64,000 nt of DNA from Chryseobacterium aquaeductus (lineage in GTDB: Bacteria > Bacteroidota > Bacteroidia > Flavobacteriales > Weeksellaceae). Of this stretch, positions 40,549 through 62,672 are shown piece by piece. The notes under the pieces are model-generated. The model did no database searches, was not told the origin of the DNA, and saw only the letters and a program-made list of their open reading frames with translations. Positions within the stretch are counted from its first letter, which is position 1, and each line of letters begins with the position of its first letter. The DNA is taken from contig NZ_CAJIMS010000001.1 in the NCBI RefSeq assembly GCF_905175375.1, positions 2,356,001-2,420,000 of the forward strand, read 5' to 3'. The translations under genes were made by a program, and so were the position numbers.

Positions 40549-41571
40549 ATGTTTAAAGATAAAACACTCTTAATAACCGGTGGAACAGGTTCTTTCGGGA
40601 ACGCAATGCTAAAAGGTTTTCTTAATTCAGATTTAAAGGAAATAAGGATTTTTTCTCGGGATGAGAAAAAGCAAGAAGATATGCGTATTGAATACAAAAA
40701 TGATAAATTAAACTTTGTTATTGGAGACGTCCGTGATTTTAGTAGTATCAATGCCGCAATGAACGGAGTTGACTTTGTCTTCCATGCAGCGGCATTGAAG
40801 CAAGTACCTTCCTGCGAATTTTATCCTATGCAAGCAGTACAAACCAATATTTTAGGAGCCGAAAATGTTTTAGAAGCTGCCGCCAATAATAATGTTGAAA
40901 GAGTTGTAGTTTTAAGTACTGATAAAGCAGTTTACCCTATAAATGCAATGGGTATCTCTAAAGCAATGATGGAGAAAATGGCTGTTGCAAAAGCCAGAGA
41001 CCGAAGAGTAGAAAATATTAATGCAATATATACTGCAACTCGATACGGAAATGTAATGTGTTCTCGAGGTTCTATTATCCCTCTTTTCATCAAACAAATA
41101 AAAGAAGGAAAACCCTTAACCATTACCAACCCTCAAATGACACGTTTTATGATGTCATTAGACGATTCTGTAGAATTAGTAATGTTTGCTTTCAAAAATG
41201 GTAATCCTGGTGATATTTTTGTGCAAAAATCTCCTGGTGCTACGATACATGTTCTAGCTCAAGCATTGAAAGAATTGTTCTATGCAGATAACGAAATTAA
41301 TATCATCGGCGAAAGACATGCAGAGAAAATGTATGAAACATTATGTTCTAAAGAAGAAATGTCTAAAGCAGAAGATTTGGGTAGATTTTACCGTGTACCT
41401 GCAGATTTTAGAGATTTGAATTACACTAAATATGTTCAAGAAGATGGACCTAAATTAATTGATCAAGAATATAATTCCGACAATACAGAAAGACTGAATG
41501 TGGAAGATTTAAAAAAACTTCTCCTAACTTTAGATTACGTAAAAGAAGAATTAGCATCTCACACTAAATAA
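40549..41571 (+). CDS. CapE/WbjB-like UDP-GlcNAc 4,6-dehydratase
   Basis: A 340-residue SDR-family dehydratase of the CapE/WbjB type (inverting 4,6-dehydratase). TGGTGSFGNAMLKGFLNSD is the NAD-binding start, IRIFSRDEKKQ follows and FHAAALKQVPSCEFYP is highly typical of CapE. The active region has STDKAVYPINAMGISKAMMEK, again with Met for Tyr. It should make UDP-2-acetamido-2,6-dideoxy-L-arabino-hexos-4-ulose. Genes for the usual FucNAc completion (capF/capG) are not visible; aminotransferase genes follow instead, so a 4-amino sugar is more likely. Confidence 0.92.
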   Translation: MFKDKTLLITGGTGSFGNAMLKGFLNSDLKEIRIFSRDEKKQEDMRIEYKNDKLNFVIGDVRDFSSINAAMNGVDFVFHAAALKQVPSCEFYPMQAVQTNILGAENVLEAAANNNVERVVVLSTDKAVYPINAMGISKAMMEKMAVAKARDRRVENINAIYTATRYGNVMCSRGSIIPLFIKQIKEGKPLTITNPQMTRFMMSLDDSVELVMFAFKNGNPGDIFVQKSPGATIHVLAQALKELFYADNEINIIGERHAEKMYETLCSKEEMSKAEDLGRFYRVPADFRDLNYTKYVQEDGPKLIDQEYNSDNTERLNVEDLKKLLLTLDYVKEELASHTK

Positions 41572-41577
41572 TATACA

Positions 41578-42666
41578 ATGTTATCATTAATAAAAACTAG
41601 TATCCCTCCACGTGAACAATTAATGCCAAGACTGGAAGAAGTTTTGTATAGTGGATATGTGGCTCAAGGAGATATTGTTGAAGAGTTTGAAAGAAAATTC
41701 GAAAAATATATTGGAGGAGGGAATACATTATCTCTAAATTCAGGAACTGCCGCATTGCATATCGCATTAATCCTAGCCGGTGTTAAAGAGGATGACGAAG
41801 TAATTAGTACTCCTTTAACAGCAGAGCCCACCAACGTCGCAATCAAAATGGTTGGTGCAAAAGTACGATGGGCAGATGTAGATATAAATACGGGTAATAT
41901 ATCTCCTGAATCAATTGAAAAAGCGATTAATTCTAAAACAAAAGCAATTATTGTTGTAGATTATGCAGGAATTCCTGTGGATGTAAAAAGAATACAAGAG
42001 ATTTCTGAAAAATATAATATTCCCGTTATTGAAGATGCTGCACATGCTTTAGGAGCAAAATTCAAAGGTGAAAAAACTGGAAATCATTTTCCTTTTACCG
42101 TCTTTTCATTTCAAGCCATTAAGCATTTAACTACTATTGATGGTGGTGCTCTTCAAATTTTAGATAAAGAACTTTATGAAAAAGGTAAAATCATTCGATG
42201 GTTTGGTCTTGATAAAAAATTAACACGTCTTGAAAATGACATTACAATTCAAGGGTATAAATATCATATGAATAACGTGAATGCCACTATTGGACTAGTC
42301 CAGTTGGAAGGTATTAAAGAATTAGTACAAAAATATATAGAAAACGGAAAATACCTTGATGAAGAATTAAAAGGTATTGATGGAGTAGAAATGATACAGT
42401 ATTATCCTGATTCAGAGCCTTCATATTGGCTTTATACACTTAAAGTTGAAAATAGAGAAGGATTTGTAAAGCTAATGACCGACAACGGAATTATGGCTTC
42501 TGAACTTCACAAAAGAAATGATTTACATACATATTTGAATGATTATCCCACTGAATTACCTAATCTAGATTTATTTTATAAAAAAATGGTTCATATTCCA
42601 TGTGGTTGGTGGGTAACTAGAGAAGATTGCGATAAAATGATTTCATTAATAAAATCAGGTTGGTAA
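41578..42666 (+). CDS. DegT-family sugar aminotransferase (catalytic copy)
   Basis: A 362-residue PLP-dependent aminotransferase of the DegT/DnrJ/EryC1/StrS family. The PLP lysine is K182 in VFSFQAIKHLTTIDGG. The phosphate-binding segment is NSGTAALHI at about 54-62 and the PLP-ring Asp is in IEDAAHALG. It should aminate the 4-keto sugar made by the CapE-like enzyme encoded 6 bp upstream. The stop codon overlaps the start of a paralogue that lacks the lysine. Confidence 0.93.
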   Translation: MLSLIKTSIPPREQLMPRLEEVLYSGYVAQGDIVEEFERKFEKYIGGGNTLSLNSGTAALHIALILAGVKEDDEVISTPLTAEPTNVAIKMVGAKVRWADVDINTGNISPESIEKAINSKTKAIIVVDYAGIPVDVKRIQEISEKYNIPVIEDAAHALGAKFKGEKTGNHFPFTVFSFQAIKHLTTIDGGALQILDKELYEKGKIIRWFGLDKKLTRLENDITIQGYKYHMNNVNATIGLVQLEGIKELVQKYIENGKYLDEELKGIDGVEMIQYYPDSEPSYWLYTLKVENREGFVKLMTDNGIMASELHKRNDLHTYLNDYPTELPNLDLFYKKMVHIPCGWWVTREDCDKMISLIKSGW

Positions 42667-43739
42667 TGGTTCCAATATTTAAACCTTATATGCCGCAGGA
42701 AATAGATTCTGAAATAATGACAATCTTAAATTCTGGACAATTATCCTATGGGAAATATGGTCGTGAGTTTGAATCGTCTTTAGTAAATTTCATAGAAAAT
42801 AACAAGATTATCACAACTGCAACATACAATCAAGCTCTTCTGATGGTCTTGTCAATTTTAGATTTAAAACCCGGCGACGAAATTATTGCAAGTCCTGTCA
42901 GCTGTTTAGCCAGTAATCAACCATTTGCGGTGAAAGGTTTGATCATAAAATGGATTGATGTAGACCCGTTAACAAGCGCAATGGATGTTTCGCAACTTAA
43001 AAGATTAATAACCCCAAATACAAAAGCCATTTTTAATAATATATTTTGTGGTTTTGCTGGGGAATTGAAGGATGTTTATGAAATAGGAAAGGAATATGGA
43101 TTACCTGTAATTGATGATTGTATTGAAGGTTTCGGCACCAAATACAATGAAAAATATATTGGAAATACAGGTGCAGATTTAACTGTCTATTCTTTTCAAA
43201 CCGTTCGACTACCGAATACTATTGATGGTGGTGCCATTTCTTTCCGCAGTGAAAAATTGTATGAAAAAGCTAAATTAATACGCGATTATGGTATTGATCG
43301 CTCAAATTTTAGATTGAGTAACGGCGAAATAAATCCAGAGTGTGATATCTATTTAGAAGGATATGGAGCAACAATGTCTGAACTAAATTCATATATAGGA
43401 TTAAAACAAATGGAAGTTATCAACGATTTGTTTGAAATTCAAACAAAAAATGCAAAAAATTGGGATGAGTTTTGTTCTAATAAATCTGATGTAAATTCTC
43501 TAAAAATACATAAAGATTGTAAACCTAACTACTGGATTTACGGTGTTTTAGCTGAAAATAAATTAGATTTTATTGCAGAAATGAAGCAAGCTGGATATTA
43601 TGCAACAGGAGTTCATGTCAACAATAATATTTATTCTATTTTTAAAAATAAAATTGATTTATCAGGGGTAAATGAGTTTATGAAAAAATTTGTAGCAATA
43701 CCATCGGGTTGGTGGGTTGATACAGCAAAAGATGTATAA
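42666..43739 (+). CDS. DegT-family paralogue lacking the PLP lysine
   Basis: A 357-residue DegT homologue from ATG 42666, joined to the preceding gene by a TAATG overlap. The residue at the PLP-lysine position is Arg181 in VYSFQTVRLPNTIDGGA, aligning with FSFQAIKHLTTIDGGA of the partner. The phosphate-binding segment is also changed: TATYNQALL instead of NSGTAALHI. The Asp in VIDDCIEGFG is kept. Without lysine it cannot be a normal aminotransferase. It may be a structural partner of the first enzyme, or may do a different PLP or PMP reaction. The fold and length are intact, so it is not a decayed gene. Confidence 0.88.
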   Translation: MVPIFKPYMPQEIDSEIMTILNSGQLSYGKYGREFESSLVNFIENNKIITTATYNQALLMVLSILDLKPGDEIIASPVSCLASNQPFAVKGLIIKWIDVDPLTSAMDVSQLKRLITPNTKAIFNNIFCGFAGELKDVYEIGKEYGLPVIDDCIEGFGTKYNEKYIGNTGADLTVYSFQTVRLPNTIDGGAISFRSEKLYEKAKLIRDYGIDRSNFRLSNGEINPECDIYLEGYGATMSELNSYIGLKQMEVINDLFEIQTKNAKNWDEFCSNKSDVNSLKIHKDCKPNYWIYGVLAENKLDFIAEMKQAGYYATGVHVNNNIYSIFKNKIDLSGVNEFMKKFVAIPSGWWVDTAKDV

Positions 43740-43749
43740 AAATTTAATT

Positions 43750-44502
43750 ATGAGAAATAATGAAGATAACTCATTAGGGTTTATTGTAATTACTGGTGCC
43801 GGCTCTGGTATTGGTCTATCAATTGTAGAAACACTTTTATCAGCTGGATATATGAAGCTGGTTTGTCAATATAGAAGTCGAAATGAAGAATTATTCGGAT
43901 TATTAAAAAGGTTTAATCTTTCTCCAGAAGACTATGCTATAAAAGCAGAACTTACTGATGAAGAAGATGTAAAAAAAATAAATGATTTTGGTAAAAGAAA
44001 GTTCGGAAATAGTTACGCTTTAATAAATGTTGCTGGTGCATCAACCAATTCAATGAGTTGGAAAATGACCAAAGATAGTTTTACCAATGTTCTAAACGCA
44101 AACTTGTTATCTGCATTTCTTTGCTCAAAAGAGTTTATTCCAGAAATGAGAAGCCAATCTTTTGGCAGAATCATAAATTTTTCAAGTGTTGTAGCATTTA
44201 CTGGTACTGTTGGATCGGCGCACTATTGTGCTGCTAAGGCAGGAGTTGTGGGGCTGTCAAAAGCTTTATCCCTAGAATTAGCAAATAAAAATATAACAGT
44301 TAATACAGTAGCACTTGGATATTTTGATAGAGGTTTGATTAATGACGTTTCGTTACCATTACAAGAAGACATAAAAGCAAAAACACCTATAAAAAGATTT
44401 GGCCAAGCAAATGAAGTGGGTGGTTTAATTAAATATATTCTAGGTAAAGACGCCGAATTTACAACAGGACAGGTGTTTCATATAAATGGAGGATTATACT
44501 AA
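43750..44502 (+). CDS. FabG-like short-chain dehydrogenase/reductase
   Basis: A 250-residue SDR from ATG 43750; ATG 43732, overlapping the previous stop, would add six residues. The NAD(P) site is VITGAGSGIGLSI, the middle has NVAGAS, and the catalytic YxxxK is in HYCAAKAGVVGLSKAL. The sequence resembles FabG-type reductases (QSFGRIINFSSVVAFTG). With a FabH condensing enzyme two genes downstream it may reduce a 3-ketoacyl group rather than a sugar. A paralogue with the same FGRIINFSSVVA block lies at 59966-60640. Confidence 0.85.
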   Translation: MRNNEDNSLGFIVITGAGSGIGLSIVETLLSAGYMKLVCQYRSRNEELFGLLKRFNLSPEDYAIKAELTDEEDVKKINDFGKRKFGNSYALINVAGASTNSMSWKMTKDSFTNVLNANLLSAFLCSKEFIPEMRSQSFGRIINFSSVVAFTGTVGSAHYCAAKAGVVGLSKALSLELANKNITVNTVALGYFDRGLINDVSLPLQEDIKAKTPIKRFGQANEVGGLIKYILGKDAEFTTGQVFHINGGLY

Positions 44503-45446
44503 TGGGTGAAAATATAAAATTTCGATACAGGCTAGTTGATACAGTTAATACTGATCATGAAAAATATAAAGCACTACATAATTCTTTATTTAAAGGTGCA
44601 AATACATCATCCGAATGGATTCAATGGTATCATAAAGAAATAGGAGCGTTAAAAGCTTGGTCAGAGGGTATTCGTACATGGGGAGTTTTTGATGGAGAAG
44701 AATTAGTTGGTATTTGGAGTGTTGAGCCTAAATTATTAAAAAGTTCTGATAAAAACATATATGTAGGAAGGTGTTTTGCAGTTGGAATTCATGAAGGATA
44801 TCGCAGACATGGTCTTTTTGTTTCTTTAAGTGAGTATGCAATTCAACAAGAAAAAAAAATAGCTGAATATGAATATATTTTAGGGTTTCCACAAGTAGGA
44901 AGATCAGTTGTTGGCGGTCATTTTAAAGCAGGATGGGAAGAAGTGTTGACAATTGATATTTTTAGCCGAAAAAATGTACCTAGGATTTTTGGCGAAGCGC
45001 GATCGACTATAAATTTTATAACAAATTATGATGGAATTAAAATTGAAGCAAAATGTGACGGACTTATTGAAAATTCAGATTACAATACTTTACGATATAG
45101 TAAACATCCAGACCATCAGTATTTAACCTACCAGTATCAAGATGCTACAATTGTTTTAAAGCCTTATGGTAATTTTTGTCATATTTTGGATTTATCGGGA
45201 GCTTTAGAAAATGTGAAATTTTTATTAGATGTTGTTAAATCACTAGCCTTAAAGCATGGGTGGGCCGAAGTCAATGCGTGGTGTGCTGAAAATGAATTTT
45301 ATAAAGAAGCCTATTTAGCTAGCGGCTTTACCTCGGGAGCTGATTTCGGATTGCCAGTCACGCTTATAGCAGTAAGAATAAATGCTGAAACTCCCCTCAT
45401 GCTAAACAATGTAAGTTTGCAAATGGGAATTGAGGAAGGATATTAA
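44502..45446 (+). CDS. GNAT-like acyltransferase
   Basis: A 314-residue protein resembling a GNAT-fold N-acyltransferase. The acyl-CoA-binding beta-hairpin and helix (YVGRCFAVGIHEGYRRHGLFVSLSEYAIQQ) is at about 87-116. The C-terminal half is less conserved, with a second domain-like part ending in NAWCAENEFYKEAYLASGF. Its start overlaps the SDR stop by one base (TAATG). It may transfer the group built by the FabH and SDR encoded next to it onto an amino sugar; the acyl donor is inferred from context. Confidence 0.75.
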   Translation: MGENIKFRYRLVDTVNTDHEKYKALHNSLFKGANTSSEWIQWYHKEIGALKAWSEGIRTWGVFDGEELVGIWSVEPKLLKSSDKNIYVGRCFAVGIHEGYRRHGLFVSLSEYAIQQEKKIAEYEYILGFPQVGRSVVGGHFKAGWEEVLTIDIFSRKNVPRIFGEARSTINFITNYDGIKIEAKCDGLIENSDYNTLRYSKHPDHQYLTYQYQDATIVLKPYGNFCHILDLSGALENVKFLLDVVKSLALKHGWAEVNAWCAENEFYKEAYLASGFTSGADFGLPVTLIAVRINAETPLMLNNVSLQMGIEEGY

Positions 45447-45464
45447 AATTCTAAAAATAAAAAA

Positions 45465-46472
45465 ATGAAAAATGTTTCAAATAATATTATAAGATCTGTA
45501 AAAATATTAGGTACAGGTTCTTATGCTCCTGAAAGAATTGTAAAAAATCAAGAATTAGCAGAAACCCTAACAACTACAGACGAATGGATTTTTGAAAATT
45601 TAGGAATACGCGAAAGACATATTGCTGCAGATAATGAATTTACTTCTGATTTAGCTTTTAAGGCAGCTGAAAAAGCACTAGAAAACGCATCATTACAAGC
45701 TAATGATATTGATTTGATAATTGTTGCTACTGCAACGCCCGACAGATTGGCACCATCAACTGCGTGTATCGTTCAAGAAAAACTAGGAGCGGTGAATGCG
45801 GCAGCATTTGATGTTAATGCAGTTTGCTCAGGATTTTTATACGCCTTTGCTATCGGGTCACAATTTATAGCAGCTGGTATGTATCAAAATGTTATGGTTA
45901 TTGGAGCGGATACATTTTCAAAAATCACAAATTGGAACGACAGATCTTGCGTATTCTTTGGCGATGGAGCTGGTGCTACCATATTATCACATACCGAAAG
46001 CGGAAAAGGTCTATTGGCTGTGGATTTATATGCCGATGGTACTGGGAAATTTAATTTTACCGTTCCAGCAGGTGGATCAGAGATGCCAGCAACAGAGGAT
46101 ACGGTTGCAAAAGGCTTACACAAATTTCAAATGAATGGAAAAGCAGTTTATGATACAGCTACAAAAGTTTTACCTGAAGCTATAACTACGGTGTTACAAC
46201 GCTGTTCTCTTACTGTAGATGATGTTAATTTTTTGATTCCACATCAACCTAGTATACGAATTTTAAAGAAAACGGCAGAATTGTTAGGGTTACCTTTCGA
46301 AAAGGTCAAAACCAATATGGAACGATATGCGAATACTTCTGGAGGTACAATCCCAATTTTATTAGATGAAGTAAATCGTTCGGGTATTTTAAAAGATGGT
46401 GATGTTTTGGTATTTGCAGCAGTAGGTTCTGGTTGGACATGGGGTAGTGCTGTAATGAGATGGGTAAATTAA
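45465..46472 (+). CDS. FabH-like ketoacyl-ACP synthase III in the glycan locus
   Basis: A 335-residue thiolase-fold condensing enzyme. The full triad is C121 (NAVCSGFLYAF), H260 (LIPHQPSIRIL) and N290 (RYANTSGGTIP). It opens with VKILGTGSYAPERIVKN and ends in GSGWTWGSAVMRW, both typical FabH. It is very unlikely to be the housekeeping fatty-acid FabH because it sits in a polysaccharide operon next to an SDR and a GNAT. It probably condenses an acyl-CoA with malonyl-ACP to start a short 3-ketoacyl chain. A decayed homologue lies at 59587-59940. Confidence 0.92.
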   Translation: MKNVSNNIIRSVKILGTGSYAPERIVKNQELAETLTTTDEWIFENLGIRERHIAADNEFTSDLAFKAAEKALENASLQANDIDLIIVATATPDRLAPSTACIVQEKLGAVNAAAFDVNAVCSGFLYAFAIGSQFIAAGMYQNVMVIGADTFSKITNWNDRSCVFFGDGAGATILSHTESGKGLLAVDLYADGTGKFNFTVPAGGSEMPATEDTVAKGLHKFQMNGKAVYDTATKVLPEAITTVLQRCSLTVDDVNFLIPHQPSIRILKKTAELLGLPFEKVKTNMERYANTSGGTIPILLDEVNRSGILKDGDVLVFAAVGSGWTWGSAVMRWVN

Positions 46473-46606: not shown

Positions 46607-48106
46607 ATGAAAAAAAATATAATTGCTAATTTTATTGGAAGATTTTGGAGCATACTTTCAAATTTTTTGTTCATTCCACTGTACATTCATTATTTAGGTT
46701 TTGAAAGTTACTCGGTTATCAGTTTTGCATTGATGATTGCTGGAATAATGGCTGTTTTAGATTCAGGCTTAACGGCAACTTTGTCACGTGAGTTCTCTAG
46801 AAAAGACAATAATGATGAGGATAAACTAAAAGTGTACAAGAATTTGGAAACACTTTATTTTTTCATGATTGGCATTTGTATTCTTTCAATTTTCTTGTCC
46901 TCAAATATAATTGCCGAAAAATGGTTGAATGTTAATTCTTTTTCTCCCCAACAAATTTCTGTCTTTTTAAAAATAATCAGTTTTGAGATTGGATTTCAGT
47001 TACTTTTTAGATTTTATATGGGTGGACTTTTAGGATTAGAAAATCAAGTTGAAGCTAATTTTTTTCAAGTAGGTTGGGGTATTTTTAGAAATGGGTTAGT
47101 ACTTGTTGCAATAATGTATATTCCTACTTTAGAAGTCTTTTTTGCTTGGCAAACCATATCTACAATTGTATTTACATTTCTTATAAAGATTTTTCTTGAT
47201 AAAATTATTTTAGGAAAATATACAATACATTTTAATTTTAATATAGAAAAAAAAATAATTTCAAAAATTTGGAAATTTGCTTCGGGTATGATGTTAATTG
47301 CAATAGTTGCAGCGTTTAATACTCAGATGGACAAATTGGCAATCAGCAAATTATTATCTCTTGAAAATTTAGGATATTATACATTAGCAGTTTCTTTATC
47401 TCAAGTACTTATCGTTTTGGTTAACCCTATTGCAACCGCATTGCTACCCAGATTTACGGCATATTTTTCTGGAAATAAAATTATTGAAGCAAGAAATCTC
47501 TTTATGAAGACTAGTTTATTAGTTTCAGTAATGATATTTTCAATTATGATGGTAATGTCATTTTTTGCCAAAAATCTCATTTGGATATGGACTGGAAACA
47601 GTGAAATCGCAACAAAAACATTTCAATTAGTTCCTATCATTGCATTAGCTTATACGATGTTTGCTTTACAATTTTTGCCCTATAATATTGCTATAGCGAA
47701 TGGATACACGAAACTTAATAATATTTTAGGTATTGGAAGCTTAATAGTCACAATTCCTGGGTATTTTTTAGCAACTAAATATTTTGGTTCTATCGGTGCT
47801 GCGACCATCTTTTGTTTTGTGCAGGTGATAACGACATTTATTTATATTTTTCTTATCAACAAAAAGTTTATAAAAAGTAATATCATAAAAGATATTTATT
47901 GGAAACAATTTATTCTACCTTTTATATGTGCTGGTATTGTTGCATTATTATTTTCTAAAATACCATTGACATTCGACAATAATCGCATATTATCTTTGAT
48001 TTGGATTGGGTTTGTTACATTTGCAACGTTAGTTATTACTTTGGCAATTTTAGTGCCTGTTAAAGAAATAAAAAGCATTATAAATTTTAGAAAAAGTAAA
48101 ATTTAA
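46607..48106 (+). CDS. Wzx-like oligosaccharide flippase (first)
   Basis: A 499-residue polytopic membrane protein of the MOP/Wzx family with about 12-14 hydrophobic segments. The start (IIANFIGRFWSILSNFLFIPLYIHYLG) is typical. It should flip lipid-linked oligosaccharide units to the periplasm. A second flippase at 62669-63955 is dissimilar, which suggests two different glycan units. It is preceded by a 134-bp spacer. Confidence 0.92.
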   Translation: MKKNIIANFIGRFWSILSNFLFIPLYIHYLGFESYSVISFALMIAGIMAVLDSGLTATLSREFSRKDNNDEDKLKVYKNLETLYFFMIGICILSIFLSSNIIAEKWLNVNSFSPQQISVFLKIISFEIGFQLLFRFYMGGLLGLENQVEANFFQVGWGIFRNGLVLVAIMYIPTLEVFFAWQTISTIVFTFLIKIFLDKIILGKYTIHFNFNIEKKIISKIWKFASGMMLIAIVAAFNTQMDKLAISKLLSLENLGYYTLAVSLSQVLIVLVNPIATALLPRFTAYFSGNKIIEARNLFMKTSLLVSVMIFSIMMVMSFFAKNLIWIWTGNSEIATKTFQLVPIIALAYTMFALQFLPYNIAIANGYTKLNNILGIGSLIVTIPGYFLATKYFGSIGAATIFCFVQVITTFIYIFLINKKFIKSNIIKDIYWKQFILPFICAGIVALLFSKIPLTFDNNRILSLIWIGFVTFATLVITLAILVPVKEIKSIINFRKSKI

Positions 48107-50303: not shown

Positions 50304-50690
50304 ATGAAAAATTCAGTAATAACTCCGATGTTCAATGCAGAGAAAAATGTAAATATTACGACAAGCGGCACTTTGATTATTAATAAATCAACCATTGTTT
50401 TAGCTAACACCTTTATTACGGATATTGATCATCACTATCAGAAAATAGGAATTCCTATTCTTGACCAGAAAATCATAGTTAAGAAAACAGAAATTGGAGA
50501 AAATTGTTTTATTGGAATGGGTGTTGCAATCCAAACAGGGACAATATTAGGAAATCAATGTATAGTGGGGTCAAATTCTGTTGTGAGAGGTGTTTTTCCT
50601 GATTATTCAGTGATCGTCGGTTGCTCCTGCTAAAATAGTGGAAAAATTTAATCTGGAAACAAAAGTCTGGGAGAAGCTAGCAAATTAAAT
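50304..50690 (+). pseudogene. Chimeric acyltransferase relic
   Basis: A broken gene. Its first 16 residues (MKNSVITPMFNAEKNV) look like the start of a family 2 glycosyltransferase, as in the gene at 52417 (RISVVIPMYNAEKTI). The following part (IIVKKTEIGENCFIGMG, then GNQCIVGSNSVVRGVFPDYS) is a left-handed beta-helix acyltransferase. The frame ends at GCSC near 50633. One base less at about 50617-50624 would give the normal ending APAKIVEKFNLETKVWEKLAN, finishing at 50687. The gene therefore looks like a fusion of two gene pieces plus a frameshift, probably non-functional. Confidence 0.8.
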
Positions 50691-50700
50691 TATTTTAAAT

Positions 50701-52413
50701 TTGAAAAAATTAGGGTTCTTATTAATAATCACTTTTTTCTGCTGCGAAGTATATTCGCAGTCTTTAACGTTGGCAAATGCTGGAAATTCTAATTACAAAA
50801 TATTGATTCCCACAGATCCTGATCAAAATGAAGTTTTAGCTGCTTCAAAATTTCAAAATTATTTCAAAACCATCACGGGAGTTCAATTGCCTATTCAAAA
50901 TAAAGAAAATCTACAGCAAGAAAAATTTGCAATTTTAATAGCAAACTCCAGAAGGTTCAAGAATATAAAAAGCATTCAGCATGACGGCGTAGTTATTAAA
51001 ACAGAAGGTAGCAATCTCTTAATTTGCGGTGGTGAAAACAGAGGAGTTTTATATAGTGTATATACATTTTTCGAAAAGTATCTAGACTGTAAATTTTTTG
51101 CATTAGATGAAATTAAAACTCCAAAGAAAAGTAAAGTTGAAATTTCTCAAATTGATTATCAATACTCACCCTATTTTAGTTTTCGATCATATTATTCTTT
51201 AGAAAACGAAGAAAAAGAGTATGCCGATTTTAATAAACAAAATTATTTTTTTGAAAATCGTCTTTATCCAGCCCATTCATTAGCATGGCTTTTACCCGCA
51301 AGTAAGTATTTTGAAAGTAATCCAGAATTTTTCGCTCTTATTGATGGAAAAAGAAATCCAACTCAAATTTGTTTTAGTAGTGATGGAGCATTAAAAGAAT
51401 TAATAAAAATATTAAGATTAGAAATGTCCTTAACCCCAAATCAAGTTTGGTCTGTTAGTCACTTAGATTCACCGAATTACTGTCATTGCAATTTATGTGA
51501 AAATAAATATAAATCAGGAAATGGTTTTTGTGAAACATTAATTCCTTTTGTAAATAAAGTTGCAAGAGCATTTCCAGAAAAAACGATTAGTACTTTAGCA
51601 TACAATCAATCAATATTTCCATCAAAATTAGAAAAACCAGAGAAAAATGTTGAAATTATGTTTTGTTTAACTAATTTGGATAGAAGGTATAGTATTACAT
51701 TAGATAAAAGTAAAGGAGCAGAAAAACTTCTGAAAGCATTACAATCTTGGAAAAAGCAAACTAGTGATATTTTTATTTGGGATTATTCGGTTAATTATTT
51801 TCATTCACTGTCGCCATTTCCTAATATTTATACTTTTCCACAAAATATAAAATTTTTTAAAGATTTTGGTATAAAAGAAGTTTTTATGCAAGGGATTGGA
51901 CCGCAAAAAGGTGAATTCTCTGAGCTTAAATCTTATATTGCCTCTAAACTTCTTTGGAATCCCAATTTAGATTTTAATAAATTGCTAGATGAATTTTTAA
52001 TAAACTACTATGGAAACGGTTGGGAAGAGATGAAAAAATATATTCTGACAATTGATGCAGAATCAAAAAAATATCAATCTCCTTTAAATGAATATTCGAA
52101 TCCAACTTTATATAAAAATGGATTTTTAAGCCAAAATAATATTTTAAATTATAAAAAAATTATAGAATCAACGCTTTCAAAAGTACAAAAAGATGGGAAA
52201 TTCTATAATAGAATTAATAAAGAAATATTAACATTGGAATACGCTGAATTAGAAATACAAAGCCTTTATGATAAAAACAAGGATTTTAATACTAAAAATG
52301 ATTTTGTTAAAAAATTAAATAATTTTAAGTTAGAAACTCAAAAAAATAATATAAAAAATCTTAAAAATGGGGAGTTTACTGTTGACGAATTTATTAATCA
52401 GAAAGAGAAATAA
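50701..52413 (+). CDS. Exported DUF4838 protein
   Basis: A 570-residue exported protein, TTG start at 50701, with signal peptide KKLGFLLIITFFCCEVYSQ. It has an N-terminal alpha-glucuronidase-like domain (about 25-130; DPDQNEVLAASKFQNYF, GGENRGVLYSVYTFFEKYL) and a DUF4838 domain (about 180-440) with NPTQICFSSDG and SHLDSPNYCHCNLCENKY. DUF4838 proteins are related to glycoside hydrolases and are probably periplasmic or surface. Inside a polysaccharide-assembly operon it could trim or edit the product. The catalytic residues cannot be assigned. Confidence 0.86.
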   Translation: MKKLGFLLIITFFCCEVYSQSLTLANAGNSNYKILIPTDPDQNEVLAASKFQNYFKTITGVQLPIQNKENLQQEKFAILIANSRRFKNIKSIQHDGVVIKTEGSNLLICGGENRGVLYSVYTFFEKYLDCKFFALDEIKTPKKSKVEISQIDYQYSPYFSFRSYYSLENEEKEYADFNKQNYFFENRLYPAHSLAWLLPASKYFESNPEFFALIDGKRNPTQICFSSDGALKELIKILRLEMSLTPNQVWSVSHLDSPNYCHCNLCENKYKSGNGFCETLIPFVNKVARAFPEKTISTLAYNQSIFPSKLEKPEKNVEIMFCLTNLDRRYSITLDKSKGAEKLLKALQSWKKQTSDIFIWDYSVNYFHSLSPFPNIYTFPQNIKFFKDFGIKEVFMQGIGPQKGEFSELKSYIASKLLWNPNLDFNKLLDEFLINYYGNGWEEMKKYILTIDAESKKYQSPLNEYSNPTLYKNGFLSQNNILNYKKIIESTLSKVQKDGKFYNRINKEILTLEYAELEIQSLYDKNKDFNTKNDFVKKLNNFKLETQKNNIKNLKNGEFTVDEFINQKEK

Positions 52414-58762: not shown

Positions 58763-59170
58763 ATGAATCATACTCGACCTCACCTTTTGTCACTTCCAAA
58801 AATTTTAGATAAGCGAGGAAACTTATCATTTTTTGAACATCCCAATCAATTGCCTTTTAAGATTGCAAGAACATATTGGATTTATGATGTTCCAGGAGGT
58901 GAAGCAAGAGGCAGCCATGCTTTTAAAGAGCAGCAAGAATTCATTGTTGCACTTTCTGGAAGTTTTGATATTGTGTTAAATGATGGTGAGAATGAGTTTA
59001 AATTTTCTTTAAATCGTTCTTATGAGGGGTTATACATTCCCAAAATGTATTGGAGAAGTTTGGAGAATTTTTCAACCAATTCGCTTGCATTGATAGTGTC
59101 GGACAGGTCTTTCGATGCTGATGACTATGTACGAGATTTTGAACAGTTTAAAACACTAAAAAATGGGTAA
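58763..59170 (+). CDS. FdtA-like sugar 3,4-ketoisomerase (variant copy)
   Basis: A 135-residue cupin of the FdtA/QdtA family. These enzymes convert dTDP-4-keto-6-deoxyglucose to the 3-keto isomer. The segment RGSHAFKEQQEF has His52 but Phe54 where the classical motif reads HAH. The next gene, a paralogue overlapping by 8 bp, has the full HAH. This copy may be inactive, structural, or have a different isomer outcome. It is a typical companion of a FdtB-like aminotransferase. Confidence 0.87.
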   Translation: MNHTRPHLLSLPKILDKRGNLSFFEHPNQLPFKIARTYWIYDVPGGEARGSHAFKEQQEFIVALSGSFDIVLNDGENEFKFSLNRSYEGLYIPKMYWRSLENFSTNSLALIVSDRSFDADDYVRDFEQFKTLKNG

Positions 59171-59600
59171 AATATCTGTATTTGATTGTTCGGTAATCGA
59201 TCTAGGAAAAATAAATTTTGAAGAAGGGAACTTAACAGTAGTTGAAAATAATTCAAATTTTCCCTTTAATGTAAAAAGAGTATTCTATTTATATGACATT
59301 GCGGGTGGGGAGAGCCGTGGTGCCCATGCTCATAAAGATTGTCATCAGTTTCTTATTGCTGCAAGTGGAAGTTTTGAAGTTAGTTTGGATGATGGAAAAT
59401 ATAAAAGGCAAGTTTTTCTGAATAGGCCCAATATAGGATTGCATATTTCTCCGGGAATTTGGGCTTCAGAAGTCAACTTTTCATCAGGAGCGATCTGCTT
59501 AGTTTTGGCATCCCATAACTATAATGAAAGTGATTATATCAGAGATTACAGTGATTTTTTAGAATTTGTAGATAGTGAAACAGTTAGTAAGAAACGTTAA
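59163..59600 (+). CDS. FdtA-like sugar 3,4-ketoisomerase (HAH copy)
   Basis: A 145-residue cupin paralogue of the preceding gene. The motif SRGAHAHKDCHQF keeps His55 and His57, the pair expected for the isomerase. It should supply a 3-keto-6-deoxy sugar for the FdtB-like aminotransferase at 61569. Its start overlaps the previous stop by 8 bp and its end runs into a fabH relic. Confidence 0.9.
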   Translation: MGKISVFDCSVIDLGKINFEEGNLTVVENNSNFPFNVKRVFYLYDIAGGESRGAHAHKDCHQFLIAASGSFEVSLDDGKYKRQVFLNRPNIGLHISPGIWASEVNFSSGAICLVLASHNYNESDYIRDYSDFLEFVDSETVSKKR

Positions 59601-59940
59601 GATTATAGGTAAAGGTTCTAAGGGAATTGAAGAAAGAAGAGTAGCTAGTGATTCAGTAGCTACAAGCGATTTGGCATGGAAGACTTGCGATAAAGCAATC
59701 AGTAATGCAGGGCGGCATTCAACCAAGTATAAAGATATTACAAAAAACTGCTAAGATTTCAGGATTACATTTTGAAAAGGTAATGGTCAAAATGGATAAG
59801 TATGCAAATACATGTGGTGGAACTTTGCCAATATTGTTAGATGAATTGCACCGAGCAGGAAAAATTAAAAAAGATAATATAATTCCTTTCGTTGTCTTAG
59901 GCAGTGGATGGACCTATGGAGCATCTATTATTAGGATGTA
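59587..59940 (+). pseudogene. fabH relic with internal deletions
   Basis: A decayed FabH homologue. From 59587, one frame reads VRNVKIIGKGSKGIEERR then SDLAWKTCDKAISNAG, matching the N-terminal part of the intact FabH (VKILGTGS, GIRERH, SDLAFKAAEKALENA) with about 27 residues missing inside. Near 59710 the frame changes and IQPSIKILQKTAKISGLHFEKV leads into KYANTCGGTLPILLDE and GSGWTYGASIIRM, the C-terminal part of FabH. The large middle, including the active-site Cys region, is gone. Remaining coding is about 118 of 335 residues. A short stand-alone reading frame from 59705 is only the C-terminal remnant. Confidence 0.85.
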
Positions 59941-59965
59941 GAATTTAAATAATAAGATATTAACA

Positions 59966-60640
59966 ATGATGATGATAATAATTGGAGCATCAAATATAGA
60001 TAATTTTCTTTACGAAAAATATAAATCTCCAAATTACAAATTTTTAGGCACTTACAACAATACTTATACAAATGCTGATGAACTTTCAAAAATAGATGTT
60101 ACAGATTACAAGCAAGTATCAGATTGGGTAGAAAATAATATAGATTTTTTAGAAAACATCACATTAATTAATTGTGCAGGGATAACATATAATTCTTTTG
60201 CTCATAAATCTGATCCAGATGCCTGGAAAAAAGTGATTGATGTAAACCTAGTAGGAACATTTAATTGTACAAGAGCAATATTACCCATTATGCGCTCTCA
60301 AAAGTTCGGCAGAATTATTAATTTTTCATCTGTTGTAGCCTCAAAAGGTACACCAAGAATAAGTGCTTATACAGCATCAAAATCTGCATTGTGGGGTATG
60401 TCTAAATCTTTAGCTCAAGAAAATGCAGGGCTTAATATCACAATTAATAATATTAATTTAGGATATAGTGAGTTGGGAATGATCAATCAGGTTTCACAAG
60501 AATTTCTGGATGCATTGGTTAAACAGATACCGGCCAAAAACTTATGTGAACCTATCGATATTTTTAGAACAGTTGATTACTTAATCAATTGCGATTATAT
60601 AAGCGGTTCATCAATCGACTTAAAAGGAGTATTGATATGA
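59966..60640 (+). CDS. SDR-family oxidoreductase with an altered nucleotide site
   Basis: A 224-residue SDR from one of three tandem ATG codons (59966, 59969, 59972). The N-terminal IIIGASNIDNFL lacks the TGxxxGxG pattern expected for NAD(P). The catalytic region (RIINFSSVVASKGTP, then YTASKSALWGMSKSL) has the usual YxxxK. It resembles the SDR at 43750 in the FGRIINFSSVVA block, so both may belong to the same acyl-building module. Cofactor binding may be weaker or atypical. The start of the GNAT gene overlaps its stop by 4 bp. Confidence 0.83.
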   Translation: MMMIIIGASNIDNFLYEKYKSPNYKFLGTYNNTYTNADELSKIDVTDYKQVSDWVENNIDFLENITLINCAGITYNSFAHKSDPDAWKKVIDVNLVGTFNCTRAILPIMRSQKFGRIINFSSVVASKGTPRISAYTASKSALWGMSKSLAQENAGLNITINNINLGYSELGMINQVSQEFLDALVKQIPAKNLCEPIDIFRTVDYLINCDYISGSSIDLKGVLI

Positions 60641-61572
60641 GTAGAGAATCAATCGAAAAACAGATAGAGTTTAGAAAAAATGAATTGATGCACTATGCAC
60701 CAACTAGTTTTTTTAGAAAAAGTGCGGAAAAGTCATTTGAATATTTTGTAAAAAATGATATAATTTCGCAAATAGAAGAGAATGATAGAGTCTTTAGTGT
60801 AAGTATAGAAGATTCCATTTATAATTTTTTTTATGAATTTTTAAAATGGGATAGTGATTTTTTTAAAATGCCAACATATAAGCTAAATTATGTACTCTAT
60901 GATGATACAAATTACCTTAGTTTACTCAAAGCAATTTCAGCGTTCAAAGAGAATATTGTAAAAAAAAGTTATATTTTTATTGAAATTCCTTCTGAAGATA
61001 TCTTTCTAATTCAGGCGTTGAATGAAAGCATGTTCAGAATGGTAGAAACAAGAATGACTTACTTTCTTGACCTGAAAACGTTTGAGAATGATAGATACCC
61101 TGTAAGAAAAGCTATTGAATCTGATATTTTAAATCTTAAAAAAGTATCTTCCGAAATGGTTAATCCATTTGATAGATTTCATGCAGATATATCTTATGAT
61201 CCAATTATTGCAGACATCTTCCTGGGTGTTTTTGCAGAGGAATCTGTTAAAGGGTTTGCAGACTATGTGATGGTTCCCAATGAAAAAGGTGTTGGTTCAG
61301 ATTCATTTTTAACAGCAAAATACAATAAAAGCTGGTGGGATCACATTGAAACTAAAGTTTCAAAAATGGTACTTAGTGCGGTGTCGTCAAAAACAAATAA
61401 AGGATGGTACGTAAAATTAATCTCCGAGATGGCATATCATTTAAGAGAGCAAGGAGCAGAGTTTGCATTGATGCATCCGGCATCTACAAATAAAGCGGTT
61501 ATTCATTCTTACGAGAAATTGGGATGCAAATTGGGTAAAGTTTCACATATTTTAACTTATATGAAAAGATGA
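60637..61572 (+). CDS. GNAT-like N-acyltransferase
   Basis: A 311-residue protein from ATG 60637, with a good ribosome-binding site AAAAGGAGT just before it and an ATGA overlap with the SDR stop. A longer TTG-started form would lie inside the SDR. The C-terminal part carries a GNAT-like fold ([20 protein letters not shown], then [12 protein letters not shown]). It probably acylates the amino sugar made by the aminotransferase encoded next. Its similarity to the other GNAT (44502) is slight. Confidence 0.78.
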
Positions 61573-62672
61573 TTAAATTTTTAGATTTACAGAAAATAAA
61601 CCTGGCTTATCAGGCTGAAATAGAAGAAAGAATTCTAAATACATTTCGTTCAGGATGGTATTTGCTGGGCACTGAGGTGAATACATTTGAGACTCATCTG
61701 GCTCAATATATTGGCTCCGGGCATGCCATTGGAGTTGCTAATGGTTTAGATGCTTTACGATTGATTCTCAGAGCATACATTGAGTTGGGTATTATGCAGA
61801 AGGGAGATGAGATTATAGTGCCTGCCAACACCTATATTGCTTCTCTTTTAGCAATTTCAGATAATGGATTGGTACCTGTTTTGGTGGAGCCGGATTTAGA
61901 AAATTATAATATTGATATTTCTAAAATCGAAGAAAAAATAAGATCCAAAACCAAGGCTATCATGATTGTTCATTTGTATGGTAGAGTTGTTTTTTCGAAT
62001 GCTTTAAAAGATTTGGCACAGAAGCATCAGCTAAAAATCATTGAAGATAACGCTCAGGCAATAGGAGCAGAATGGGAAGGCAAAAAAACAGGAAATTTAG
62101 GAGATGTAGCAGGTTTCAGTTTTTATCCTGGGAAGAATTTGGGAGCCTTGGGTGATGGCGGAGGGGTTACGACAAGTGATGATGATTTGGCAAAAACCAT
62201 ACGTGCGTTGGCAAATTATGGGTCAATGCAAAAATATGTAAACATTTATCAGGGTCTGAACTCACGATTGGATGAAATTCAGGCAGCTGTTTTGGATGTT
62301 AAACTAAAATATATTGATTCTGAAAACGATAGGAGAAGAGAGATAGCTGAAAGATATTTGTCAGAAATAAAAAATCCTGCGATTATACTTCCGAATGTTG
62401 CTAAGAATGGGAATGAGCATGTGTGGCATTTATTTGTGATCAGGATTCAGGAAAGAGAGAAGTTTCAGACTTATCTTACGGAAAAAGGTGTTCAAACGCT
62501 GATTCATTATCCTATTCCTCCTCATAAGCAGGATGCGTACAAAGAAATGAATGATTTGGTTTATCCTCTTACCGAGCAGATTCACAATGAGGTACTGAGC
62601 CTGCCGATAAGCCCTGTGATGACGGATGAAGAGGTGGGGAATGTGATTGAAATAATTAATAAAAAAGAGTGA
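61569..62672 (+). CDS. FdtB-like sugar 3-aminotransferase
   Basis: A 367-residue DegT-family PLP aminotransferase. The PLP lysine is in [19 protein letters not shown]. The start [20 protein letters not shown] and the [11 protein letters not shown] phosphate-site segment fit FdtB/QdtB, which make 3-amino-3,6-dideoxy sugars from the 3-keto sugar supplied by the FdtA-like isomerases. It overlaps both neighbours by 4 bp. Confidence 0.93.

What the first reader, a model, noticed from the sequence alone, without database searches (positions are those of the whole stretch)
41578..46472. Dedicated short-acyl module (FabH, SDR, GNAT) in an amino-sugar operon
A complete FabH-type condensing enzyme (triad C121, H260, N290) lies in one operon with an FabG-like reductase, a GNAT-like transferase and DegT aminotransferases. 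Fatty-acid genes are not normally put in polysaccharide operons. The simple reading is that the cell builds a short 3-hydroxyacyl chain on a carrier and puts it on a 4-amino sugar made by the CapE-like enzyme and the aminotransferase. From memory, the Flavobacterium psychrophilum O-antigen carries a 3,5-dihydroxyhexanamido group on a diamino sugar, which would fit two condensation and reduction rounds. The exact enzyme route here seems little described.
Basis: partly seen in the sequence, partly recalled or inferred. Interest (0 to 1): 0.75.

Follow-up and report, generated by a model that had tools for sequence, protein, structure and literature searches.

The report
Hydroxybutyryl cassette for an amino sugar
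A Chryseobacterium-type bacterium keeps a fatty-acid starter enzyme inside its surface-sugar genes, most likely to hang a short 3-hydroxybutyryl tag on an amino sugar; the idea has precedents, but one of its two 'aminotransferases' has lost the residue that makes it an aminotransferase, which is odd and testable.

Summary
FnlA-like dehydratase, two DegT proteins, a FabG-like SDR, a GNAT and an intact FabH (C121/H260/N290) lie in one tight run inside a Wzx/Wzy-type locus. FabH is accessory: the genome has another FabH of a type found in 99 of 120 family genomes. The grouping is not chance: 4 of 5 named-genome loci with a relative of this GNAT carry DegT-DegT-GNAT-FabH-SDR in a row. In 16 relatives with the DegT pair but no FabH, other acyltransferases fill that slot. 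Best reading: FabH and SDR make a 3-hydroxybutyryl thioester; GNAT puts it on the 4-amino group made by DegT1. The two-round 3,5-dihydroxyhexanoyl idea is not supported: one ketosynthase, no local ACP. The general idea is in print (Pseudomonas syringae Vio; Flavobacterium psychrophilum Wfp). New here: (1) the second DegT has Arg for the PLP lysine in 22 of 22 tandem pairs and lacks the SGT motif, yet is conserved; (2) the acyltransferase is a tandem GNAT resembling N-myristoyltransferase, and 113 of 116 sequences end in Tyr; (3) a second cassette 12 kb downstream, for a 3-amino sugar, has a broken FabH but open partner genes.

The parts
40549..41571 (+). FnlA/CapE-like UDP-GlcNAc 4,6-dehydratase/5-epimerase
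   Evidence: TIGR04130 517.8 bits, below its cut-off of 730; best PDB relatives 4j2o and CapE
41578..42666 (+). DegT1, sugar 4-aminotransferase with PLP lysine (SFQAIKH)
   Evidence: PF01041 286 bits; closest PDB AtmS13/CalS13; Lys in 22 of 22 tandem DegT1
42666..43739 (+). DegT2, DegT-fold protein with Arg183 for the PLP lysine and no SGT motif
43750..44502 (+). FabG-like SDR (ORF listed from TTG 43717; likely ATG 43750)
   Evidence: TIGR01830 193 bits, below its cut-off of 298; YxxxK and TGxxxGIG
44502..45446 (+). GNAT1, tandem GNAT acyltransferase resembling N-myristoyltransferase, C-terminus EEGY
45465..46472 (+). FabH1, beta-ketoacyl-ACP synthase III, triad C121/H260/N290
   Evidence: groups with glycan-locus FabHs, modest support
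46607..48106 (+). Wzx-type flippase that closes the acyl slot
   Evidence: PF01943 51 bits
58763..59170 (+). FdtA-like 3,4-ketoisomerase (second cassette)
   Evidence: PF05523 158 bits
59163..59600 (+). second FdtA-like 3,4-ketoisomerase
   Evidence: PF05523 177.5 bits
59575..59941 (+). FabH2 remnant: N-terminal piece and C-terminal piece in different frames; the middle with the catalytic Cys and the His is missing
   Evidence: full-length counterpart in L079
59966..60640 (+). SDR2, FabG-like reductase with atypical N-terminus
   Evidence: PF00106 118 bits; 83% identical to the L079 counterpart
60637..61572 (+). GNAT2, WecD-like acyltransferase (longest ORF from TTG 60589)
   Evidence: NF008212 35 bits, cut-off 219; no Pfam match at E 0.001; 79% to L079
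61569..62672 (+). DegT4, sugar aminotransferase with PLP lysine (second cassette)
   Evidence: PF01041 362 bits; SFYPGK

Best explanation
A dedicated N-(3-hydroxybutyryl)ation cassette for a UDP-linked 4-amino sugar. Inferred steps: the FnlA-like enzyme makes a UDP-2-acetamido-2,6-dideoxy-4-keto sugar; DegT1, probably together with DegT2 as a partner that does not itself transaminate, makes the 4-amino sugar; FabH1 condenses acetyl-CoA with malonyl-ACP (the cell's ordinary ACP) to acetoacetyl-ACP; the SDR reduces it to 3-hydroxybutyryl-ACP; the tandem GNAT transfers that acyl group (from ACP or after passage to CoA) to N-4; the acylated sugar enters the repeat unit that the neighbouring flippase exports. 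Shown here: gene content, catalytic residues, recurrence, the accessory status of FabH, and the variable acyltransferase slot. Not shown: chain length, stereochemistry, sugar identity, carrier.
For: Intact FabH triad and SDR motifs. Recurrent linkage: 4 of 5 named-genome loci with a GNAT1 relative have DegT1-DegT2-GNAT-FabH-SDR contiguous; FabH is directly adjacent to an SDR in 7 of 7 glycan-type FabH loci read outside the window, and one gene away from it in the window. In 16 relatives with the DegT pair and no FabH match in the stretch read, the gene after DegT2 matches a GNAT (11) or hexapeptide (3) acyltransferase family at E <= 0.01 (several below Pfam cut-off), and the second gene matches hexapeptide families in the other 2, so this position is the acyltransferase slot. 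Glycan FabHs group apart from the FabI-linked FabHs. Housekeeping-type FabH present elsewhere in the genome. Precedent: the vioR, vioA, vioB and vioT deletion flagellins lack modified viosamine (PMC3927599, passages). 3-Hydroxybutyryl is reported on several 3- and 4-amino sugars of surface polysaccharides (PMC3210612, passages).
Against: No structure of this strain's glycan is known to me. No ACP gene in the window. The WOR-3 locus L110 has FnlA, DegT, DegT, SDR and GNAT but no FabH in the 20.9 kb held, so FabH is not always local. GNAT1's closest folds include CoA-dependent enzymes, so ACP use is not supported. The four relatives have SDR2-type reductases after FabH; the window's SDR is of another type and lies before the GNAT. 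GNAT1 is rare: besides the window's own, only two matches near E 6e-4 in 296 family genomes. The glycan FabH grouping has modest support (86/35), the window's FabH is a long branch in it, and the tool warns that long branches meet in this tree.
Confidence: 0.72

Rival explanations
1. The chain is longer: two rounds give 3,5-dihydroxyhexanoyl, as on the F. psychrophilum O-polysaccharide.
For: Two FabG-like SDRs in the window; F. psychrophilum carries that group.
Against: Only one complete ketosynthase III found in the locus and no local ACP; Cisar et al. assign two ketosynthases, an ACP and a reductase to that product. The second SDR belongs to a separate cassette whose FabH is broken.
Confidence: 0.1
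2. FabH1 accepts a branched or other starter (for example isobutyryl- or isovaleryl-CoA), or the group is otherwise not plain 3-hydroxybutyryl.
For: FabH specificity was not tested here; flavobacteria make branched fatty acids (recalled); a Shewanella Qui4N carries 3-hydroxy-3-methylbutyrate beside 3-hydroxybutyrate, depending on medium (PMC3210612, passage).
Against: Nothing direct; 3-hydroxybutyryl is reported in several structures in the passages seen, but I searched that review for hydroxybut- terms, so this is not a count of frequency.
Confidence: 0.15
3. FabH1 is a misplaced or spare housekeeping fatty-acid gene with no glycan role.
For: It is a full FabH by NCBIfam cut-offs, and about 62% identical to FabI-linked FabHs of relatives.
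Against: A different FabH of the type found in 99 of 120 family genomes is present; the FabI-linked FabH lineage is separate; FabH recurs in the same glycan setting in other genomes.
Confidence: 0.04
4. The sugar is a pseudaminic or legionaminic acid precursor (PseB/PseC/PseH-like steps).
For: The FnlA-like enzyme also scores on PseB and DegT1 on PseC models, below cut-offs.
Against: No NeuB/PseI-family gene in a 99.9%-complete genome (PF03102, 0 matches; the control rings in 9 of 14 genomes).
Confidence: 0.03
5. DegT2 is not a passive partner but a PMP-dependent dehydratase of ColD/E1 type, so the sugar is also deoxygenated.
For: The DegT fold includes ColD and E1; the genome has a His-type DegT too (L121).
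Against: ColD and E1 have His at the site (mutant names in PDB titles); here it is Arg in every sequence examined and the SGT motif is gone.
Confidence: 0.07

Closest known systems
Pseudomonas syringae viosamine island (VioA, VioS, VioB, VioR, ACP)
   Same: Aminotransferase plus KAS III plus FabG-like reductase plus acyltransferase; proposed product N-(3-hydroxy-1-oxobutyl)-2-O-methylviosamine; flagellin of vioR, vioA, vioB and vioT mutants lacks it (PMC3927599, passages)
   Different: dTDP sugar on flagellin, own ACP gene, smaller acyltransferase (VioB, 213 aa); the island's seven listed genes include no second DegT; sequences of Vio proteins were not compared here
Flavobacterium psychrophilum O-polysaccharide R1-group genes wfpC-wfpG
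   Same: Proposed type II fatty-acid-like route to an N-acyl on a 4-amino sugar (PMC6519341, passages)
   Different: Two ketosynthases, own ACP, PglD-type acyltransferase, C6 dihydroxy product; window has one complete FabH, no ACP, tandem GNAT
CalS13/AtmS13 sugar aminotransferases
   Same: Closest solved relatives of both DegT1 and DegT2 by sequence
   Different: DegT2 has Arg for the PLP lysine and lacks the SGT motif
N-myristoyltransferase and other tandem GNATs
   Same: Overall two-domain GNAT fold; near-fixed C-terminus, as NMT uses its C-terminal carboxylate as base (PMC4964394, passages)
   Different: About 12% identity; likely sugar substrate; short hydroxyacyl group
FdtA/FdtB/FdtC-type 3-amino-sugar pathway (second cassette)
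   Same: Two FdtA-like proteins and a DegT aminotransferase
   Different: Acyltransferase place taken by FabH (broken here, full-length in L079), SDR2 and GNAT2

Membership tests
FabH / KAS III | KAS III family with Cys-His-Asn triad | tested here: met
   NF006829 and TIGR00747 above cut-off; C121/H260/N290
FabH / KAS III | condenses a CoA-primer with malonyl-ACP | not testable with these tools
   needs enzyme assay
VioS-VioR-VioB type N-(3-hydroxybutyryl)ation set | KAS III, FabG-like reductase and acyltransferase beside a sugar aminotransferase | tested here: met
VioS-VioR-VioB type N-(3-hydroxybutyryl)ation set | dedicated ACP gene in the set | tested here: not met
   no PF00550 match in the window; three elsewhere in the genome
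VioS-VioR-VioB type N-(3-hydroxybutyryl)ation set | 3-hydroxybutyryl on the sugar | not testable with these tools
   needs MS/NMR
F. psychrophilum R1 (3,5-dihydroxyhexanoyl) route | two ketosynthases and an ACP | tested here: not met
   one complete FabH and one remnant in the window, no local ACP; FabF-type ketosynthases were not searched for beyond the ORFs read
FnlA | TIGR04130 score above cut-off | tested here: not met
   517.8 against 730; hence called FnlA-like
DegT-type PLP aminotransferase (DegT2) | DegT fold | tested here: met
DegT-type PLP aminotransferase (DegT2) | PLP-binding lysine | tested here: not met
   Arg in 22 of 22 pairs and in 120 of 120 listed homologues of 1646 found, the window's own included
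N-myristoyltransferase | sequence membership (Pfam NMT) | tested here: not met
   only PF13527 reported for GNAT1 at E <= 0.001; fold likeness only
Pseudaminic acid pathway | PseI/NeuB-family synthase in the genome | tested here: not met
   PF03102 0 matches

The most novel reading that the evidence does not exclude
DegT1 and DegT2 form an obligate hetero-complex in which DegT2 is a pseudo-aminotransferase (no PLP lysine, no SGT motif, but its own set of invariant residues). It positions the UDP-sugar, or hands the amino sugar to whichever acyltransferase occupies the next gene slot. The slot in this strain is filled by a FabH-SDR-tandem-GNAT cassette whose acyltransferase uses its C-terminal tyrosine carboxylate as base, as N-myristoyltransferase does.
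Probability: 0.3. Interest if true: 0.78.

Novelty: new variant of a known kind. Interest (0 to 1): 0.58.

Why it matters
It gives a compact, recurring rule for predicting N-hydroxyacyl groups on surface sugars of Bacteroidota from gene order; in F. psychrophilum such groups affect LPS antigenicity (PMC6519341, passages). It also exposes a conserved kind of DegT protein (Arg at the lysine site in all 120 homologues examined, of 1646 found at E <= 1e-40; the rest were not examined and may include ordinary DegTs) that sources, where they name it, call aminotransferase, transaminase or perosamine synthetase. A protein without the PLP lysine is unlikely to transaminate by the usual route, so its role in amino-sugar synthesis is an open and testable question.

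Tried and rejected
Two-round chain: rejected as above. Pseudaminic/legionaminic route: rejected. Housekeeping role for FabH1: rejected. The FabH-FabI-like pair seen in 17 of 20 fetched FabH loci was looked for in the own genome and has no close relative there (best 30% identity); the FabI name is by best NCBIfam match below cut-off for one member and by eye for the rest. Of the 43 genomes with a FabH hit at E <= 1e-95 (own included), 20 others were fetched for context; 22 were not read. Of the own genome's six PF08541 matches, L006 was not studied. Of its 12 PF01041 matches, the six weak ones were not examined. GNAT1 in 296 family genomes: besides the window's own match only two, at E about 6e-4, which I treat as noise. 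A sequence search of GNAT1 in the PDB gave nothing usable. Paper searches for Lys-less DegT partners gave no relevant title in the lists shown (15 of 21 shown; 10 of 534 shown); this does not show that none exists. Searches for FabH with hydroxybutyryl amino sugars gave no further genetic precedent in the lists shown (15 of 123; 18 of 18; 12 of 36). PMC5601056 (term search of the text, no hit) and PMC10714938 (2 passages) did not help; PMC2829124 (2 passages) only shows the NMT C-terminal carboxylate at the peptide site. Promoter/terminator scan: 47 promoter-like sites against 38.2 (sd 5.9) expected and 3 terminator-like against 3.5; not used.

Recalled, not from a call: PseH and PglD roles beyond the passages seen, branched fatty acids of flavobacteria, the role of the SGT motif in PLP-phosphate binding, the names Wzx/Wzy for the flippase and EpsG-type polymerase, the chemical products of FnlA-type enzymes, FdtA/FdtB/FdtC roles. 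Gene labels in relatives not scanned with Pfam (formyltransferase-, ligase- or transposase-like) are by eye.
Full report
WHAT IS THERE. The window lies in a 3.49 Mb, 99.94%-complete genome. Its genus appears to be Chryseobacterium: the DegT2 homologue P0164, named Chryseobacterium populi, sits on a contig of 207,546 bases, the same length as contig C12 of genome G179, which is marked same genus (inference). On the + strand: FnlA-like 40549-41571, DegT1 41578-42666, DegT2 42666-43739, SDR 43750-44502, GNAT1 44502-45446, FabH1 45465-46472, then a flippase (PF01943), a family-2 glycosyltransferase and an EpsG-family protein. DegT1/DegT2 and SDR/GNAT1 overlap by one base. FabH1 is over both NCBIfam FabH cut-offs and has C121, H260 and N290. 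The FnlA-like protein is below the FnlA equivalog cut-off (518 against 730), so the name is by likeness; its best solved relatives are 4j2o and CapE.

IS THE FABH DEDICATED? The genome has six PF08541 matches, including FabH1 and the remnant in the window. One of the others, L001, is a full FabH by NCBIfam, 38% identical to FabH1, and of a type found in 99 of 120 family genomes, own included, at E <= 1e-120; I take it as the housekeeping enzyme. FabHs 60-67% identical to FabH1 occur in other family genomes: 43 of 296 genomes had a match at E <= 1e-95, own included. Of 20 fetched, 17 sit beside a FabI-like gene and 3 (L077-L079) sit in glycan loci beside an SDR2-type reductase. A tree of 30 FabHs puts the window's and seven other glycan-locus FabHs in one group (support 86/35, modest) apart from the 17 FabI-linked ones (95/93); the window's FabH is a long branch, and the tool warns of long branches meeting.

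RECURRENCE. A genome-collection scan with a GNAT1 alignment gave 5 loci. Four have DegT1-DegT2-GNAT-FabH-SDR contiguous: Tenacibaculum ovolyticum, an uncultured Tenacibaculum, an unclassified MAG and a Chitinophaga pinensis MAG; three of the four have the FnlA-like gene just upstream. The fifth, a WOR-3 MAG, has FnlA, DegT, DegT, SDR and GNAT without FabH. In relatives found by DegT2 (13 others of 296 family genomes at E <= 1e-60; 3 more in 395 phylum genomes at E <= 1e-75, besides own and one already known) DegT1 is adjacent in 16 of 16, and the FnlA-like gene is directly upstream in 10 of 16. No FabH match was seen in these 16 stretches. There the slot after DegT2 holds other acyltransferases: the first gene matches GNAT families in 11 and hexapeptide families in 3; in the other 2 (L030, L032) the first gene has no match and the second matches hexapeptide families. 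The cut-off for these matches was E 0.01, and several GNAT scores are below Pfam's own cut-offs. So the FabH cassette occupies an exchangeable acyltransferase slot, as expected if the slot sets which N-acyl group is used.

SECOND CASSETTE. At 58763-62672: FdtA, FdtA, FabH remnant, SDR2, GNAT2, DegT4. The remnant has an N-terminal piece with an internal gap and a C-terminal piece in another frame; the middle, with the catalytic Cys, and the His are absent. A congener (L079) has the same six genes in the same order with a full-length FabH ORF (330 aa, 63% to FabH1; its catalytic residues were not checked; SDR2 83%, GNAT2 79%, DegT4 78%). SDR2, GNAT2 and DegT4 of the window are open and show dN well below dS against L079 (0.09/0.95, 0.12/1.48, 0.16/1.92). 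A simple reading is that FabH1 now supplies both cassettes; not tested.

LITERATURE. PMC6519341 (abstract and passages): F. psychrophilum wfpC-wfpG proposed for a type II fatty-acid-like route to the 3,5-dihydroxyhexanoyl group, with ACP and two ketosynthases. PMC3927599 (passages): viosamine island with VioS, VioR, VioB and ACP; vioR-deletion flagellin lacks modified viosamine, as do those of vioA, vioB and vioT. A vioS mutant is not in the passages I saw. PMC3210612 (passages): 3-hydroxybutyryl on various 3- and 4-amino sugars, and 3-hydroxy-3-methylbutyryl on a Shewanella Qui4N. So the kind is known; the variant (no ACP gene, tandem GNAT, Lys-less DegT partner, exchangeable slot) I did not see in the listings, most of which show only part of the papers found.

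VERDICT. Observation confirmed; interpretation partly supported: C4 rather than C6 is the simplest product. New variant of a known kind; the conserved Arg-DegT is the most surprising part.

Noticed in passing
window 42666-43739: DegT-fold protein with Arg for the PLP lysine, next to a normal DegT in the loci read; probably mis-annotated as aminotransferase.
   Followed up: yes
window 58763-62672: Second short-acyl cassette for a 3-amino sugar with a truncated FabH but open SDR, GNAT and DegT.
   Followed up: partly
L034 14047-17156: Relative with both modules in one locus: DegT1-DegT2 and FdtA-FdtA-...-DegT4, with about 1.1 kb between FdtA and DegT4 and no match there to the window's FabH, SDR2 or GNAT2.
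   Followed up: no
window 50304-50633: 109-residue hexapeptide-repeat ORF, shorter than the acyltransferases seen in relatives; may be a fragment.
   Followed up: no
window 50701-52413: DUF4838 protein with a weak GH67 N-terminal match, encoded inside the polysaccharide locus.
   Followed up: no
L043 10252-11592 and 13978-15318: Two copies of a 446-residue ORF with the same listed translation, transposase-like by eye, just beyond the glycan locus.
   Followed up: no
L032 6024-10669: A relative whose slot after DegT2 holds a 223-residue protein without Pfam match, a PglD-like transferase, then by eye an acyl-CoA ligase-like gene and an SDR: perhaps another way to a non-acetyl N-acyl group.
   Followed up: no
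L037 10913-11407: Single-domain GNAT of the acyl slot with a weak, below-cut-off Pfam NMT match (E 0.005).
   Followed up: no
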